Positions 9 to 43,593 of a stretch of 43,593 bases of DNA are shown one piece after another; within the stretch, counting starts at the first letter, position 1; each line of letters starts with the position of its first letter. The stretch comes from a virus, in the IMG/VR virus record IMGVR_UViG_3300033888_000029, positions 1 through 43,593 of that record, one strand, 5' to 3'. Made by a program: the position numbers and the translations under genes. The notes under the pieces are model-generated. The model searched no databases and was not told where the DNA came from. It saw nothing but the letters and a program-made list of their open reading frames with translations.

Positions 9-134
9 CTGCGTTGGTGCTCGAAAGTGGCATTCAAGAGTGCCAACGCTCGCCCGCAATCGCAGCAGCGCCTATCCTGTCGCTCCCACATCAGTTTTAC
101 GCGCCGCTTGTATTCTAGCCACCCGTCTTTTGAA
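9..134. repeat. Left copy of 126-bp terminal direct repeat
   Basis: Identical to 43468-43593. An exact end-to-end repeat of about 126 bp fits the k-mer overlap left when an assembler closes a circular or terminally redundant genome. The HNH reading frame runs intact through it, so the molecule continues across the joint. It may be an assembly overlap and need not be a true physical terminal repeat. Confidence 0.95.
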
Positions 135-2881: not shown

Positions 2882-3308
2882 ACATGCGCCCATTTTACCC
2901 CAAAATCCCCGAAATCCTCCCCCTAGCACCTTAGTAACCTACCGTTCTGGCAACCATTTCGTGCTATATTCTGCCTTGTAACCGTTTTGGGGCCATTCCG
3001 ATCGCTGCCCGCGCGCCAAAGCCGGGTACCTGCCTCCGCGCCTGTCAGCTACTCGTGTCCGCAAAAGTCAACGTTCTCGGCGATCGCGTCAAAAAGTGCA
3101 ATCGAGCGACCGCCAAATTGAAAGTTGCCCGCGGCGGATTTCGCTGGTTGGACGACTTCACGATCGTAGCTATCCCCGTCCTCTGCGCGCCCAGCCCCGC
3201 GGCGCGCCCCTTCCGTTTCGGCCCCTCCGCTTCATTTCAGGATTGGCAGCCGCGGCCCTCGCTCGGATTTCTGGTCATGCAGCTCCGCACTTCGCGCGTG
3301 GTGACGGC
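2882..3308 (+). promoter_or_regulatory. Intergenic region with extended -10 promoter and direct repeats
   Basis: No convincing gene. Two copies of ACCGTTYTGG lie exactly 40 bases apart (2941-2950 and 2981-2990). Between them is TGCTATATT (2962-2970), an extended -10 element without a clear -35. This would transcribe towards the LuxR-type gene. The open frames across 3055-3300 are Arg/Pro-rich and have no good start signals, so I treat the stretch as a leader. No tRNA fold is visible. Confidence 0.4.
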
Positions 3309-3584
3309 GTGAGCGCCGGCTTAAGCCTGGTGGTCTCCGGCACCGAGATCCCTGATTTACTTCCCTCTCTGCGCGATATTCTGACCGAAACGCAATTCAG
3401 GATCGCGGGCTGCGTGCGTGATGGCCTGGAGAATCGCGAAATCGCGAAAGAGTTGAAGATGAGTTACCACACCGTCAAAGCGTATGTGTACAGATCGTGT
3501 GAGCGCGTGGGCTGCGACAACCGGGTGCAGCTGGCCGTGCGTTATCAACGCGAGGAAATGGCCGGCAGGTATGAGCAGCGATGA
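3309..3584 (+). CDS. LuxR-type helix-turn-helix protein
   Basis: 91 residues when started at GTG 3309. Residues 25-80 form a GerE/LuxR DNA-binding domain: LTETQFRIAGCVRDGLENRE, then IAKELKMSYHTVKAYV and a closing helix, matching the usual L-T-x-x-x...N-x-E-I-A...T-V-K pattern. There is no sensor domain. The frame extends upstream to 3096, but that part is Arg/Pro-rich and unlike coding sequence. It overlaps the next gene by ATGA. A regulator of the nearby operator region or of late genes is plausible but not shown; small phage proteins of this fold can also serve as terminase-like DNA binders. Confidence 0.75.
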   Translation: MSAGLSLVVSGTEIPDLLPSLRDILTETQFRIAGCVRDGLENREIAKELKMSYHTVKAYVYRSCERVGCDNRVQLAVRYQREEMAGRYEQR

Positions 3585-4073: not shown

Positions 4074-4616
4074 GTGGAGGCATTATCAAAGCCCGAGCTG
4101 ATCTCCCTCTTGCAAGCGGCGAGGACGCACAGCCCGAAGAATTGGCTGATGATTCTTGTGGCTTACTCGCACGGCTTGAGAGCAAGCGAAGTGGTACGGC
4201 TCGAAAGGGATGCGGTCGCCGACGGGCACCTGACCGTCGCTCGATTGAAGGGAAGTCTGCGGACTGTGCAGCCTTTGATCTCGGATCTGGAACCGCTTCT
4301 AGATGAGCGTGCGGCGCTCTTAGCTTTCATTCGTCCCATGCGCGTCAACCAAAAGCTTTTCCCCGTCACCCGGCAGCATTTCTGGCGTCTGATGCAGCGC
4401 TACGCGAAAGCCGCGGGGATCCCCGAGCGCAAGCGTCATCCCCACGTTTTAAAACACACCGTAGCCATGCAAACCATTCACAGCGCGGGAATTGAGAACG
4501 TTCGCCAGTATCTCGGCCACAAGTCCATGAGTAGCACGGGGGCGTACCTGAAAAAGACGGATGCGGAGGCAGCGGTTGCCATCGGGCTTGCCTTACAGGG
4601 GTCATCTGGCCTTTGA
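4074..4616 (+). CDS. Minimal tyrosine recombinase (integrase-like)
   Basis: 180 residues, only the catalytic domain. Recognisable residues are Arg36 (HGLRASEV), Lys59 (ARLKGS), His124 and Lys127 in HVLKHTVA, His149 (LGHK) and Tyr158 (TGAYL). The second active-site Arg of the usual H-x-x-R-H motif is Lys here. The N-terminal core-binding domain of phage integrases is absent. GTG 4074 is the likely start; it follows the terminator by about 15 bases, so another transcript or read-through must express it. It could integrate the phage, resolve dimers or act in recombination. No attachment site is recognisable. Confidence 0.8.
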   Translation: MEALSKPELISLLQAARTHSPKNWLMILVAYSHGLRASEVVRLERDAVADGHLTVARLKGSLRTVQPLISDLEPLLDERAALLAFIRPMRVNQKLFPVTRQHFWRLMQRYAKAAGIPERKRHPHVLKHTVAMQTIHSAGIENVRQYLGHKSMSSTGAYLKKTDAEAAVAIGLALQGSSGL

Positions 4617-32776: not shown

Positions 32777-33135
32777 GCAAGTTCGTCTCGAAACTCGAAG
32801 CCATCGCCAAGGATTTCAACCGGGGCATTCTGAAAATTCTGCCCTGGGCGGAAAAAGCGGAGCCGGAAATTGACGCTTTGGTCCCCGCGCTCGGGCCTGC
32901 CTACAATTCCACCGTTACCGCGATCGCCTTGGCGGAACAGAACGGGGCTGCGGTCGGAGCATCCGGCACCGGCCCACAAAAAGCCGCCGCCGTGATTGCG
33001 CTGGTTGGGAACCTGGTGCAGACGGAGTTGAAGACCGCCGGCCAGCCCTCGACCGCCGCCGACGTTCAGAAGTATGTACAGTCGGTGTACACTGTCCTCA
33101 GCACGGCCCCGAGTAGCGCCGCGCCCAGCGCCTAA
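32773..33135 (+). CDS. Conserved small protein next to lysis genes
   Basis: 120 residues, AAGGAG before ATG 32773. ILKILPWAEKAEPEIDALVP, then GPAYNSTVTAI is the recognisable part; the rest is Ala-rich and helical. A degenerate copy of the same sequence lies inverted at 41269-41579. No catalytic motif; function unknown to me. Overlaps the next gene by TAATG. Confidence 0.7.
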   Translation: MSKFVSKLEAIAKDFNRGILKILPWAEKAEPEIDALVPALGPAYNSTVTAIALAEQNGAAVGASGTGPQKAAAVIALVGNLVQTELKTAGQPSTAADVQKYVQSVYTVLSTAPSSAAPSA

Positions 33136-33386
33136 TGTCCAAGCAACTCAAATCCGTCGCCGAACTCTATGCCGAATACGAATCTCAGCGCGAGCAGGGC
33201 AAACTCTTCTACGAGAAGGCCGACACCATCCTCGCAAAATTGGTGCGCACCTGGAAGAAAGACAAATCGGCGAAGATCGACGACAAGCACACGCTCGAAA
33301 TCGAAGACAGCTTCCGGGGGCAGGTGAAAGCCTTCGCCCCCGCCTTCGCTCACAGGTACAAATTGAAGTCCAAAGCCATTGACTAA
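33135..33386 (+). CDS. Small charged protein, unknown function
   Basis: 83 residues starting MSKQLKSVAELYAEYESQRE, rich in Lys, Glu and aromatic residues, predicted helix with a short beta part (HTLEIEDSFRG). It is the last gene of the late operon. No family recognised. Confidence 0.6.
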   Translation: MSKQLKSVAELYAEYESQREQGKLFYEKADTILAKLVRTWKKDKSAKIDDKHTLEIEDSFRGQVKAFAPAFAHRYKLKSKAID

Positions 33387-33484
33387 GAAGTAACTAGCCC
33401 AACTTTATTTTCCCCTTCATCCTCCGCTTCAACTCCTCCCGCCTCGCCCGCAGAAACACGCATCTAAGTCGTTCTTTTCCGAGA

Positions 33485-33514
33485 TTTCCACAGCGTTTTC
33501 ACAGCTATTCACAG
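33485..33514 (+). repeat. Three DnaA-box-like direct repeats
   Basis: TTTCCACAG (33485-33493), TTTTCACAG (33496-33504) and TATTCACAG (33506-33514) follow each other at 10 to 11 bases, one helical turn. Each resembles the DnaA box TTATCCACA at six or seven of nine positions. Phase and strand are the same for all three. Confidence 0.5.
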
Positions 33515-33525
33515 GCTGAACGTCA

Positions 33526-33554
33526 TTGACAATTTTTCATTGCGGGGCTATTTT
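33526..33554 (+). promoter_or_regulatory. Promoter for the early/replication operon
   Basis: TTGACA (33526-33531), a 17-base spacer, then TATTTT (33549-33554). The -35 is perfect and the -10 matches four of six. Start near 33561 gives a leader of about 280 bases that contains the hairpin at 33643-33727. Confidence 0.65.
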
Positions 33555-33642
33555 TGCGCCTGCTGTGAACTTCCTGCCCCATCCCGCCGCGATTTTGCAT
33601 AATCCCGATTTTCCGCATTCCCTGTTATCAGACATTGCTTGT

Positions 33643-33727
33643 GCTCCGCGTCCCGCCCGCGCAACCGTTGAAAGGTGCAATCTCACTTGCATTACGGTGC
33701 GGCAAACGGGCGGGCGGAACGCGGAGC
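33643..33727 (+). ncRNA. Long nested hairpin in the early leader
   Basis: Three stems are nested. GCTCCGCGT + CCCGCCCG (33643-33659) pairs with CGGGCGGG + ACGCGGAGC (33707-33714, 33719-33727) with a four-base bulge. Inside, CGCAACCGT pairs with ACGGTGCG (one bulged A). At the tip TGCAA pairs with TTGCA. It may be a structured RNA leader or a DNA cruciform at an origin. It matches no riboswitch I can name. Confidence 0.55.
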
Positions 33728-33838
33728 ATCTACCACCTGTTACGAATTCCGAACACATCCGGCAAGCCTCAGACCGGCAACCCCTCCCCCAAGTAGTCTT
33801 TCCAGTCCTTACTCCCCCAAATCTTTCCAGGGGGAGCT

Positions 33839-34093
33839 ATGTCTTCATCGCGCCAATTCTTGCGCAAGATCGAGTTCCGCGAAATCAGAACTTTTTACAC
33901 CGTCTCCGAAATGCTGGAGTGCGGCCACCGCTTCGAGAGCGAAGTGCTCTTCTTAGCCGATCCGCTGGTTGCGAAACACAGAGTCTGCCCGAAGTGCGCC
34001 CAAGCCGCTTCCCTGCTCGAAGTTCCCAAGAAGCCGTCTGGCTCGACGAAATCGATGCCTGCTTTACTCCAGGGCGACCGCCGAGTGGGTTAG
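33839..34093 (+). CDS. Small zinc-finger protein
   Basis: 84 residues; GGGGGAG precedes ATG 33839. LECGHRFESEV (around residue 28) and VCPKC (49-53) give Cys-x-His and Cys-x2-Cys, a likely zinc site of the kind seen in many small phage early proteins. N-terminus basic. First gene of the early operon; function unknown. Confidence 0.65.
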   Translation: MSSSRQFLRKIEFREIRTFYTVSEMLECGHRFESEVLFLADPLVAKHRVCPKCAQAASLLEVPKKPSGSTKSMPALLQGDRRVG

Positions 34094-34105
34094 AAAGTTT
34101 ACTCA

Positions 34106-34507
34106 ATGACTGAACTCCTCCGAAAACCGATCCTCTGTCTCGATTTTGATGGCGTTTGTCACAGTTACACGTCGGGATGGAAGGGCGCGGCGGTGATTCC
34201 TGACGGATACGTCGAAGGGTTATTTGAGTTCCTAGAGGCGGCAAAGGAAGAGTTTGAAATCCACGTCTTTTCCAGTCGAACACATCAAGCGGGCGGCAAA
34301 GAGGCAATGCTCGCATGGTTCTACGAACAGCGAAAAATCTGGCGCTCGAAGGGCGGCAAGCCTCCAGTTGATACGCCGATCACGATCAATTTCCCCAACG
34401 AGAAACCGCCTGCGATGGTGAGCTTAGACGATCGCTGCTTATTGTTCACGGGACAGTGGCCGTCAATCGAAAGCCTGAAACAGTTCAGGCCGTGGAACTT
34501 GAAATAA
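34106..34507 (+). CDS. HAD-superfamily phosphatase
   Basis: 133 residues. Motif I is LCLDFDGV (Asp13, Asp15), motif II FSSRTH (55-60), motif III Lys100 in NEKPPA, and motif IV LDDR (Asp108, Asp109). All four HAD elements are present in a minimal, cap-poor protein. Such phage proteins act on nucleotides or 5'/3' phosphate ends; the substrate is not evident. Confidence 0.8.
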   Translation: MTELLRKPILCLDFDGVCHSYTSGWKGAAVIPDGYVEGLFEFLEAAKEEFEIHVFSSRTHQAGGKEAMLAWFYEQRKIWRSKGGKPPVDTPITINFPNEKPPAMVSLDDRCLLFTGQWPSIESLKQFRPWNLK

Positions 34508-34555
34508 CCCTAACCCCGCCAAAAGCATGGCGGAAAACCAGAGAAAGTGAAGTGC

Positions 34556-34972
34556 ATGAGCGTACCTAACACGCCCGAGAACAACACCCAATCCGATTCC
34601 CCGCCAGGCATAGAGTCTCACGTTCGCCAAACTCTCGCCAATAATTCTCTTTCCGCCAATCACTCCCCCGAACCTTGGTATCTTTTCAGCGGGCAAACTC
34701 CAGGCATCCTCTTCGAAGTCCGTTCAGTCGATTGCGAATTTAATCACGAGATCGTCGCACTCGTTCCCGCGGAGCCTGGCGAGCCGCTTCCCGTCCAAGC
34801 CGTTTCAAACGGTGCTCTAATCGCCCACGCCCCGCGCCTGCTGCGCACGCTCCGCCAGTTGTTCGCAACCTACCTGATTCCAGTCGAGTATCGCGACGTT
34901 CCCGAACAGGTTGAGGCGGTCAAAGCCGCGTCCGAACTGCTTCACGATCTACAGAAGGCTGGGGTGTTCTGA
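34556..34972 (+). CDS. Small early protein with HSPEPW motif
   Basis: 138 residues from ATG 34556 (a GTG three codons upstream is the alternative). SANHSPEPWYLF (about 37-48) and SNGALIAHAPRLLRTLRQLF (around 88-107) match a widespread phage pattern: H-x-P-E-P-W near the start, N-(A/G)-x-LI-x-x-AP-x-LL near the middle. Function unknown. The N-terminal 35 residues are disordered. Confidence 0.65.
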   Translation: MSVPNTPENNTQSDSPPGIESHVRQTLANNSLSANHSPEPWYLFSGQTPGILFEVRSVDCEFNHEIVALVPAEPGEPLPVQAVSNGALIAHAPRLLRTLRQLFATYLIPVEYRDVPEQVEAVKAASELLHDLQKAGVF

Positions 34973-35379
34973 TGGCGGACCCGATGACTAGAGAGAGAGT
35001 TGTTAAGACCTTGATTTTTTTTGGAGAGAGTTTAGCCGAAAAAGAGCAAGCCGACGTATTGCGTGAAGTCAAAGAGACTAACCATTGGGCATTCGCGGCA
35101 CTGGCAATTGCGATGTATCGGGCTACTCACGATTTGCAGCGCGCCATCCCACGGCAGCCCGGAAAAAGTCAAGAAATGGCTGTACGGGAGAAAGGCGTGA
35201 TGACTTTTCAGTTGTTAAATTCGGGTGAGGAAAGGAGCCGCGGAGAATCGCCAGAGCCATTGCGCCGGCCAATGATGCGCTTGCCGGAGAAAACGAAAGG
35301 CCCGCCGTCAAACCGGCAGGCCCCAGACCCCAACAATCAAACTGCAACGAGTTTAACAGACCAGGAGCGCAGCAGATGA
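34972..35379 (+). CDS. Small early protein, unknown function
   Basis: 135 residues; ATG 34972 overlaps the preceding stop. Helical N-terminal 60 residues (EKEQADVLREVKETNHWAFA), then a disordered, basic, Pro/Asn-rich tail. Overlaps the next gene by ATGA. No family recognised. The opposite strand has a longer frame but it is a shadow. Confidence 0.55.
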   Translation: MADPMTRERVVKTLIFFGESLAEKEQADVLREVKETNHWAFAALAIAMYRATHDLQRAIPRQPGKSQEMAVREKGVMTFQLLNSGEERSRGESPEPLRRPMMRLPEKTKGPPSNRQAPDPNNQTATSLTDQERSR

Positions 35380-35943: not shown

Positions 35944-36263
35944 TGATCAACCTCCGCCAACACGTCAGCGACATGATGGTCTGGGTGAACCTGATTTTAC
36001 CGGAACTGGCCGACGATCATGTCCGCAAAATGGATCAAGCCGAAGTCGAGCGGACATTTCTAGAGTTGTACGTTCCGCTGACCGCCCAATTCGCGGAATT
36101 TGACGGGCATTCGGAACAGGAACGCCTCGCCTGGGCAAAAGAACTGATCCGCAAAGCGCGGGAAGTACCACCCGGGGAGCAGGCGCCGTTGCCGCTCACC
36201 CCGGAAAATCCTGTCCGAAAGGAGGTGCCCAGACAATCGCCCGAAGTTGTTGCTCCGCTCTAA
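35943..36263 (+). CDS. Small helical early protein
   Basis: 106 residues from ATG 35943. MINLRQHVSDMMVWVNLILP starts a helical domain (DDHVRKMDQAEVERTFLELY); Pro-rich C-terminus (PGEQAPLPLTPENP). No family recognised. The stop codon lies next to the first hairpin at 36253. Confidence 0.55.
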   Translation: MINLRQHVSDMMVWVNLILPELADDHVRKMDQAEVERTFLELYVPLTAQFAEFDGHSEQERLAWAKELIRKAREVPPGEQAPLPLTPENPVRKEVPRQSPEVVAPL

Positions 36264-36317
36264 ATGCAGTTCTGGGGAGCGGAGTTGAATTCCGTCACTT
36301 GTGGCGGAATTGAACTC
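36253..36317 (+). promoter_or_regulatory. Two overlapping palindromes
   Basis: CTCCGCTC (36253-36260) pairs with GAGCGGAG (36277-36284). GAGTTGAATTCCG (36282-36294) pairs with CGGAATTGAACTC (36305-36317), with CAC/GTG extending it to a nearly closed stem of about 17 pairs. The two hairpins share three bases, so forming one weakens the other. There is no T run, so a simple terminator is unlikely. An attenuator, processing site or operator between small genes and the helicase is plausible. Confidence 0.55.
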
Positions 36318-36328
36318 TGTTTCTGAAA

Positions 36329-36496
36329 ATGAATTGGCTAGATCCAAAGACTGTGCGCCGCTACAAAACCGCCAACCAGCGGAAAAACCGACTTATGTTT
36401 AGAATCCGCCACCGAGCAACCGAATTGGCGCAGCAGTGCTTGCGCAATGAGTCTGGCCGGGCGTGTAAGAAATACAAAACTAAGGGAGCATTTTGA
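36329..36496 (+). CDS. Small basic protein upstream of helicase
   Basis: 55 residues: starts MNWLDPKTVRRYKTANQRKN and ends in CKKYKTKGAF. Very basic, so nucleic-acid binding is likely. The TGA stop overlaps the TTG start of the helicase gene (TTTGA), suggesting coupled translation. No family recognised. Confidence 0.55.
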   Translation: MNWLDPKTVRRYKTANQRKNRLMFRIRHRATELAQQCLRNESGRACKKYKTKGAF

Positions 36497-38070
36497 ACAC
36501 GTTGGATCCAAACGAATCCGAACCACGCTCAGCTTGGCAGCGCCTGAATCTTTACGAGACGCCCCCATCTCCGTCCTCCCTCTGCGATCTGCGCTTGCAG
36601 GGCGAGATCTTATCCCGCGTGCTCGAACAACCCGATCTCCTTCAGGAATCATTCGGCGACTTAGCTATCTCCGATTTCGTTGGCAAGGTCCACCAGTCGT
36701 TGTTCCGCACTCTACTTAAACTCTCGCAAGAGGGCCGGCCCTTCGACATTACGACCGTGGCCGACTCTTGGGGTGCGCAACAAGAAGTGGGCGACCCAGT
36801 TGCCTACATATCCGGCTTGCTCGACACGCACGACTTACCCGCATCAAACCTTCGCCTGCGGGTTGAAAAACTACACAAACTCTCCCAACTCCGGCGCTTA
36901 CGTTTCATGGGCGAACTCCTGCAGCGCCATGCCGAGAGCGCGAAAACCGAACCCGATCTACTTATGGAGAAACTTTCCATGGGTGTCGAAGCTTTGCGCG
37001 CGGGTTACGACCTGAACGGCGACATGCTTCCCTACTCCCCGCGCAATCTCGCGCGGCGTCCCGATTTGATCAGATTGTCGTCCGTCGAAGCGAAGCCGGT
37101 GCCGTGGCTGTGGCGCCCGTATCTCTCTTTCGGGATGATCAACATGCTGTCGGGCGAGCCGGGATCGGGGAAAACCTACTTAGCTTTGGCATTCGCGGCG
37201 GCGCTCACTCTCGGCAAAATTCCCTTCACGGGCGACGATTGTTTCCCTCTCGACGTGCTTTATCTTTCCATCGAAAACGATCCGGAGTATGTTGTCCGTC
37301 CGCGCTTCGATCTGCTCGAAGGCGATGTCGGGCATTTCCATTTACTCCAAGGCGCAAAAACTGGCGAGGGTTCGAAGGCGAGGCGGGAAAGCGTCAGGTT
37401 GAGCGATGTGCCACTGCTCGACGCGGCGCTAAAAGAGACCAAGGCGAAACTACTGGTCGTGGACCCCATTCAGTCCTACCTCGGCGGCGAAGTCGATATG
37501 CACCGTTCGAACGAAACACGCCCGCTTCTCGACGGTTTGGCGTTTCTCGCGCGCAAATACCAAGCCTGCCTCTTAATCCTGCGCCACTTCGCGAAGACCA
37601 CGACCGGCTCGGCGATCAATCGCGGGCTTGGCAGCATTGACCTTACTGGAGCGGCGCGCACGGAGCTGCACGCGGGGAAACGCGACGGCCGGCATGTGCT
37701 GGCGCACGCCAAAAGCAATATCGGCCCCTTTGGAAAATCCATGGGCTATGAACTGTGCGATGACGGCAGCTTCCACTGGACCGGGGAGAGCGCGATCACA
37801 GCCGATGATTTAGCGGCTACCGGCAACATGACGACCGAAGACCGGGACGCGGTGGATGAGAGCGCCGAATGCCTGAAGGATATGCTGCACCGCGGCGCGA
37901 AATCGTCTCGCGATATTTTTTCCGCGATGAAGGACGTTGGGGCGTCGATCGCGGCGGTGAAGCGAGCCAAGAAAAAACTTGGGGTCAAGTCGCGGAAGAG
38001 GGGCGGCTCAGGCGAGGGTTGGGAGTGGTATTTGGAGGGCTACGAAGATGGCGAGATAGCCTCCAGTTGA
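36493..38070 (+). CDS. Replicative helicase: DnaB N-domain fused to RepA-type ATPase
   Basis: 525 residues. TTG 36493 is chosen because AAGGGAG lies six bases upstream. Residues 28-165 resemble the DnaB N-terminal domain (LQGEILSRVLEQPDLLQESF, IYR-like HQSLFRTLLKLSQEGRPFDI, VAYISGLLD). Residues 205-420 are a RepA/RecA-fold ATPase: Walker A GEPGSGKT (221-228), Walker B LLVVD (to 324), then RHFAKTTTGSAINRGLGSID as in plasmid RepA helicases. The C-terminal 70 residues look like a winged helix ending EGWEWYLEG. It should unwind DNA at the fork. It is followed by iteron-like repeats. Confidence 0.85.
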   Translation: MNTLDPNESEPRSAWQRLNLYETPPSPSSLCDLRLQGEILSRVLEQPDLLQESFGDLAISDFVGKVHQSLFRTLLKLSQEGRPFDITTVADSWGAQQEVGDPVAYISGLLDTHDLPASNLRLRVEKLHKLSQLRRLRFMGELLQRHAESAKTEPDLLMEKLSMGVEALRAGYDLNGDMLPYSPRNLARRPDLIRLSSVEAKPVPWLWRPYLSFGMINMLSGEPGSGKTYLALAFAAALTLGKIPFTGDDCFPLDVLYLSIENDPEYVVRPRFDLLEGDVGHFHLLQGAKTGEGSKARRESVRLSDVPLLDAALKETKAKLLVVDPIQSYLGGEVDMHRSNETRPLLDGLAFLARKYQACLLILRHFAKTTTGSAINRGLGSIDLTGAARTELHAGKRDGRHVLAHAKSNIGPFGKSMGYELCDDGSFHWTGESAITADDLAATGNMTTEDRDAVDESAECLKDMLHRGAKSSRDIFSAMKDVGASIAAVKRAKKKLGVKSRKRGGSGEGWEWYLEGYEDGEIASS

Positions 38071-38159
38071 GCGAATAACCAGGCGTGTCAAATTGTAGAC
38101 GGTTAGACGTTTGGCCGGATGCGGGGGATAAGTGTCGCTTGCTAACAGTTTGTTTGTAG

Positions 38160-38224
38160 TCAAAGGGGTCAAAGGGGCTCAAGAATTCTGTGTGCGACCC
38201 CTTTGACCAGTTTGACCCCTTTGA
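38160..38224. repeat. Iteron-like inverted repeat array
   Basis: TCAAAGGGG occurs in tandem at 38160-38168 and 38169-38177. Its reverse complement CCCCTTTGA occurs at 38198-38206 and 38216-38224. The two arms can pair into a long hairpin. There is no T run after it. Position just downstream of the helicase gene and in a non-coding gap (38071-38251) suggests an origin or binding site for the replication protein. Confidence 0.65.
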
Positions 38225-38251
38225 AAAATGCAACAGTGAAAAGAGACACCA

Positions 38252-43432: not shown

Positions 43433-43593
43433 TTCTGTCGTCTCGCCACGCCGCCCCCATCCCTCGCCTGCGTTGGTGCTCGAAAGTGGCATTCAAGAGT
43501 GCCAACGCTCGCCCGCAATCGCAGCAGCGCCTATCCTGTCGCTCCCACATCAGTTTTACGCGCCGCTTGTATTCTAGCCACCCGTCTTTTGAA
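43368..43593 (-). CDS. HNH endonuclease, C-terminal catalytic part
   Basis: Continuation of the gene starting at 253, reading through the 126-bp overlap. Sequence DGWLEYKRRVKLMWERQDRR, then CCDCGRALALLNATFEHQRR, GAAWRDDRI and NGAAHWVCNGVQG: the CCDCG pair, FEH and the closing HWVCN are an HNH zinc/metal-binding pattern. Stop at 43368, overlapping the convergent early gene by about 65 bases. Confidence 0.8.
   Translation of the reverse strand, partial: SKDGWLEYKRRVKLMWERQDRRCCDCGRALALLNATFEHQRRRGMGAAWRDDRITKDGQDWNGAAHWVCNGVQG
43468..43593. repeat. Right copy of 126-bp terminal direct repeat
   Basis: Identical to 9-134; see the left copy. Confidence 0.95.

What the first reader, a model, noticed from the sequence alone, without database searches (positions are those of the whole stretch)
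33643..33727. Long nested hairpin in the early leader
Seventeen base pairs in the outer stem plus two inner stems over 85 bases, located between promoter and first early gene, in DNA that codes for no protein. It could be a regulatory leader RNA, a small RNA, or a single-strand origin hairpin.
Basis: seen in the sequence. Interest (0 to 1): 0.6.

Follow-up and report, generated by a model that had tools for sequence, protein, structure and literature searches.

The report
Hairpin RNA in a phage leader
A soil phage carries an unusually stable 87-base hairpin in the untranslated start of its presumed early transcript; it is real and probably a regulatory or processing signal in that RNA, but no relative shares it, so its function cannot be confirmed from sequence.

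Summary
The hairpin is real. Bases 33642-33728 form 18 Watson-Crick pairs (10 + 8, split by one C.A mismatch) closing a 49-nt loop. MFE is about -52 kcal/mol, z -5 to -7, the strongest in the window, beyond all 20 shuffled windows (best 15 pairs). The inner stems are not significant (z -1.5). It lies in a 452-nt gap with no coding signal, about 80 nt after a TTGACA-17-TATTTT promoter-like site and 110 nt before an 84-aa ORF. Additions: the ORF's Shine-Dalgarno is buried in a 7-bp stem, a C-rich/G-poor (rut-like) stretch follows the hairpin, and three phased DnaA-box-like repeats precede the promoter. Best reading: a structured 5' leader RNA of the early operon, most plausibly an RNase III processing or leader-control hairpin that works like the lambda N leader. 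This is inferred. Covariation could not be tested: the only other copy is identical, and relatives with the same upstream gene have unrelated gap sequence and no such hairpin. Rivals: a palindromic (REPIN-like) insertion (no second copy found in IMG/VR, phages, plasmids or about 1,000 Acidobacteriota genomes), a put-like antiterminator (architecture differs), an origin hairpin (iteron-like repeats at 38.16-38.23 kb compete). Modest interest.

The parts
33642..33728 (+). long hairpin: arms 33642-33660 and 33710-33728 (18 WC pairs, one C.A mismatch), 49-nt loop
33674..33693 (+). inner stem GGUGCAA-UCUCAC-UUGCAUU within the loop (7 pairs in the MFE); whole loop z only -1.5
33526..33554 (+). promoter-like site TTGACA-17-TATTTT (10/12)
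   Evidence: consensus match only
33484..33514 (+). three direct repeats NTWTNCACAG, 11 and 10 bp apart, each 8/9 to the DnaA box; only TWTNCACAG sites in the window
33562..33838 (+). inferred non-coding 5' leader of the early operon (start inferred from the promoter-like site)
   Evidence: transcription start inferred
33752..33829 (+). C-rich, G-poor stretch (44% C, 12% G), third strongest 78-nt C>G window on the + strand; rut-like
   Evidence: Rho use inferred
33812..33836 (+). stem CUCCCCC(33812-33818)/GGGGGAG(33830-33836) burying the Shine-Dalgarno of the first gene; a near-repeat of its 5' part lies at 33784-33805
33839..34093 (+). first ORF after the leader, 84 aa, Cys-rich, sub-threshold zinc-ribbon match
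34106..34507 (+). second ORF, 133 aa, HAD-like by weak Pfam match; phrog_23773

Best explanation
The hairpin is a structured element of the untranslated 5' leader RNA of the phage's early operon. RNA polymerase starting near 33562 would transcribe it within about 165 nt. The near-perfect 19-position duplex then most likely serves as an RNase III processing or leader-control site that separates the 5' leader from, and sets the stability and translation of, the first early gene, whose Shine-Dalgarno is itself held in a stem. It would thus work like the RNase III-cleaved leader of the lambda N gene. Shown: the hairpin, its rank and its non-coding position. Inferred from patterns: the promoter, the leader and its direction. 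Inferred without direct evidence: cleavage and regulation.
For: Energetic and pair-count excess over shuffles. Non-coding gap. Promoter-like site whose second hexamer ends 88 bases upstream of the hairpin. In the 299-nt stretch 33562-33860 the hairpin forms at high probability (0.999 for the pair 33643-33727) and the Shine-Dalgarno GGGGGAG is paired at 0.98-1.0. That 7-bp stem is the second longest among 56 tested start sites. A near-repeat of its anti-SD half lies just upstream. A C-rich, G-poor stretch follows the hairpin. RNase III cleavage of the lambda N leader and T7 early RNAs is established (Steege 1987 and Dunn & Studier 1973, as cited in PMC5371410).
Against: No conservation: phages with the same upstream gene have other sequence in the gap and no such hairpin. 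In L035 the nearest promoter-like site leaves almost no leader before the first gene (read in the sequence). The SD-region fold itself is no better than shuffles (z -0.7 to -0.95). The antisense strand folds as well. No Rfam family matches. RNase III cleavage cannot be predicted from a fold alone.
Confidence: 0.38

Rival explanations
1. It is a palindromic intergenic element of the REPIN/MITE kind, picked up from a host and tolerated in a gap, with no dedicated phage function.
For: Size (87 nt), arm length and nested form match the 80-110-nt palindromic elements that a scan of contigs carrying the same terminase family finds next to prophage genes, e.g. L126 11481-11583, L134 2219-2306, L142 9095-9198 and L146 2338-2441. 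Absence from relatives fits an insertion.
Against: No second copy in the window. No paired-arm copy in IMG/VR; 28 single-arm hits there lack a partner arm. None in phage or plasmid records. In Acidobacteriota only chance-level matches; in the last two searches each inspected hit lies in a long open frame and lacks a partner arm. The true host is unknown.
Confidence: 0.22
2. It is a processive antitermination RNA like HK022 put: the nascent hairpin binds RNA polymerase and lets it read through terminators or Rho sites in the early operon.
For: Position just after the presumed early promoter, the right size range, and a rut-like C-rich stretch downstream. HK022 putL lies just after PL, and putRNA suppresses intrinsic and Rho-dependent termination (PMC9378689).
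Against: put is two side-by-side stem-loops in a V shape with a bulged stem I (PMC9378689); here a single nested hairpin encloses everything. No Rfam match. Terminator-like sites in the early region are at chance level.
Confidence: 0.1
3. It is part of the phage replication origin: DnaA-box-like repeats, AT-rich DNA and a hairpin for strand initiation.
For: Three phased DnaA-box-like repeats are unique in the genome. Exact DnaA boxes occur near the same place in relatives L033 and L035. The detrended GC-skew minimum is at 34.9 kb.
Against: An iteron-like inverted array at 38157-38225 directly follows the DnaB-like helicase gene, and the raw skew minimum is at 37.6 kb. The 49-nt loop disfavours cruciform extrusion. 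The relatives with DnaA boxes lack the hairpin.
Confidence: 0.1
4. It is an independent small RNA, or an antisense transcript hairpin of the minus strand.
For: The minus-strand fold is continuous and slightly more stable (-53.0, z -7.0).
Against: No minus-strand promoter-like site in 33000-34600 and no terminator-like site on either strand in the gap.
Confidence: 0.08

Closest known systems
RNase III-processed leader of the phage lambda N gene (also T7 early RNase III sites)
   Same: Long hairpin in the untranslated leader between the early promoter and the first early gene's Shine-Dalgarno
   Different: No sequence similarity found; cleavage untested; no nut (boxA/boxB) site was searched for; presumably a soil bacterium host
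HK022 putRNA
   Same: Structured RNA of about 70-90 nt close to the early promoter
   Different: Single nested hairpin instead of two stem-loops; no detectable family match
REPIN and other palindromic intergenic elements
   Same: About 87 nt, inverted arms of 19 nt, nested hairpin, intergenic
   Different: Single copy; no dispersed copies found in any collection searched

Membership tests
RNase III-processed phage early leader (lambda N type) | long duplex in a non-coding early leader upstream of the first gene | tested here: met
   (the leader itself rests on a promoter-like pattern)
RNase III-processed phage early leader (lambda N type) | cleavage by RNase III | not testable with these tools
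   needs transcript ends in wild type and an rnc mutant
HK022 putRNA | two adjacent stem-loops | tested here: not met
   single nested hairpin; put description PMC9378689
HK022 putRNA | antitermination needing only RNA polymerase | not testable with these tools
   no assay possible
REPIN / dispersed palindromic element | multiple copies in a genome | tested here: not met
   none in window, IMG/VR, phages, plasmids, about 1,000 Acidobacteriota genomes; true host not available
Replication origin hairpin | located at the initiation site | tested here: inconclusive
   skew minima 34.9 kb (detrended) and 37.6 kb (raw); competing iteron-like array at 38.2 kb
Any Rfam family | covariance-model match | tested here: not met
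Conserved structured RNA | covariation among homologues | tested here: inconclusive
   only one other copy, identical; relatives' gaps not homologous

The most novel reading that the evidence does not exclude
A protein-free leader RNA switch of a new family: the long hairpin, the C-rich Rho-loading stretch and the duplicated anti-Shine-Dalgarno/SD stem act together to decide between early termination and expression of the early operon in a phage of the epsilon15/phiV10-like kind.
Probability: 0.08. Interest if true: 0.65.

Novelty: new member of a known kind. Interest (0 to 1): 0.3.

Why it matters
Early leader RNAs decide how a phage's first genes are switched on, and few are known outside model phages. 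If active, this would be a compact leader control element in a phage from uncultured soil bacteria, testable with a reporter. As it stands it is one well-formed hairpin without homologues.

Tried and rejected
Rfam: only chance matches to lncRNA models. DNA similarity in phages and plasmids: none. Paired-arm, single-arm and loop patterns in IMG/VR (inspected in 74, 43): only this phage has the hairpin. Relatives through flanking genes: the early module (ORF 33839, helicase) is found only in the identical contig; the gap is not homologous in the others. Hairpin survey of the relatives' fetched records: nothing comparable in their early gaps. Dispersed-element test in Acidobacteriota (inspected in 81): only chance-level matches, and the inspected ones lie in long open frames. 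Terminator of the late operon: rejected, no T-run on either strand after the hairpin. Coding: rejected by codon usage. Assembly artefact: unlikely, since the contig IMGVR_UViG_3300038457_000192 carries the identical sequence and the arms are imperfect.

Full report
WHAT THE WINDOW IS. The window is an IMG/VR virus record of 43,593 bases. Bases 9-134 recur as 43468-43593, a 126-base terminal repeat. Two contigs of one other sample (IMGVR_UViG_3300038457_000107 and _000192, 26,833 + 16,752 bases) tile it, and _000192 runs across the ends, so the genome is probably complete at about 43.5 kb. Terminase, portal and head-closure proteins match phage families. The nearest named phages by terminase are Pseudomonas phages UFJF_PfDIW6 and AF and E. 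coli phages such as phiv142-3, all below 50% identity. From general knowledge, several of these are podoviruses near the epsilon15/phiV10 group; that assignment was not tested. A tyrosine integrase fragment lies at 4074-4613. Among bacterial contigs, close terminase relatives include Acidobacteriota MAGs (Candidatus Sulfotelmatobacter 58%, Bryobacterales 56%) and a betaproteobacterial MAG (58%), so an Acidobacteriota host is only a guess.

THE OBSERVATION. The hairpin is there and is exceptional. The arms 33642-33660 and 33710-33728 pair at 18 of 19 positions. The fold is -52.0 kcal/mol, z -5.3; the 85-nt version is -50.4, z -6.0. No other hairpin in the window reaches 13 pairs under the same criterion, and 20 shuffled windows reach at most 15. 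The inner stems are close to chance (z -1.5). Both strands fold equally well.

SURROUNDINGS. The gap 33387-33838 has no coding signal in any frame. A promoter-like site TTGACA-17-TATTTT lies at 33526-33554. In front of it stand three direct repeats of NTWTNCACAG at 11- and 10-bp spacing, the only TWTNCACAG sites in the genome, each one mismatch from the DnaA box. After the hairpin the + strand is C-rich and G-poor: 33752-33829 is the third strongest such 78-nt window in the genome, and the strongest, 33398-33475, lies just after the last gene before the gap. The Shine-Dalgarno of the first ORF (33839-34093) is in a 7-bp stem 33812-33836, and CTCCCCC..TCTTTCCAG is present twice (one search finds the first copy; the second, three bases shorter, is read). 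This RBS stem is not significant by shuffling, so it is suggestive only.

COMPARATIVE EVIDENCE. The same sequence occurs in one other contig, identical. The early module (ORF 33839 and the helicase at 36493) was not found in any other phage. Six phages share the gene just upstream of the gap (58-70% identity), but their gaps are unrelated in sequence and lack a comparable hairpin. In L035 the promoter-like site TTGACT-17-TACATT ends about 9 bases before the first ATG, so there is hardly a leader at all (read). Covariation therefore could not be tested, and the element is not general to these phages.

COULD IT BE A DISPERSED PALINDROME? Contigs that carry the same terminase family often hold 80-110-nt nested palindromes near phage genes (L126, L134, L142, L146), so the anatomy alone does not demand a phage function. 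But no second copy of this one exists in the window, IMG/VR, phage or plasmid records, and about 1,000 Acidobacteriota genomes give only chance-level matches; the twelve from the two order-level searches lie in long open frames without a partner arm. If the host lies elsewhere the test is blind.

MECHANISM. The most economical reading is a structured 5' leader. Transcribed early, the long duplex is a natural RNase III substrate, as in the lambda N leader and T7 early RNAs (PMC5371410), upstream of a translation start that is itself masked. A put-like antiterminator is possible, but putRNA has two side-by-side stem-loops (PMC9378689). An origin hairpin is less likely, since an iteron-like inverted array sits behind the helicase gene. 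Steps shown: hairpin, non-coding position. Steps inferred: promoter use, leader, cleavage, regulation.

VERDICT. Observation confirmed. Interpretation partly supported; function unproven; no family membership established. Interest 0.3.

Noticed in passing
window 38157-38225: Inverted array of GTCAAAGGGG/CCCCTTTGAC repeats directly after the DnaB-like helicase gene (36493-38070); likely iterons or origin. L061 and L066 carry similar inverted arrays of other short repeats.
   Followed up: partly
window 33484-33514: Three helically phased DnaA-box-like repeats in front of the presumed early promoter; exact DnaA boxes at the same place in L033 (5627) and L035 (5582).
   Followed up: partly
window 33398-33475: Strongest C-rich/G-poor stretch of the genome, right after the last gene before the gap; candidate Rho-dependent terminator.
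   Followed up: partly
window 36261-36350: Second strongest local fold of the window, in the gap before the helicase gene.
   Followed up: no
window 9-134 and 43468-43593: 126-base direct terminal repeat; the record is probably a complete, circularly assembled genome.
   Followed up: yes
window 3096-3584: LuxR/GerE-type HTH regulator gene next to the integrase gene; candidate lysogeny or lysis regulator.
   Followed up: no
window 35297-35324: Good intrinsic-terminator-like site on the minus strand inside a + strand ORF.
   Followed up: no
L049 5146-5241: Another phage of the terminase family has a 96-nt hairpin in a gap; its loop reads like part of the HAD-like gene family found at window 34106-34507 (by eye).
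   Followed up: no
L142 9095-9198 and L146 2338-2441: Nearly the same 100-nt palindromic element upstream of the terminase gene in two Sphingomonas contigs.
   Followed up: partly
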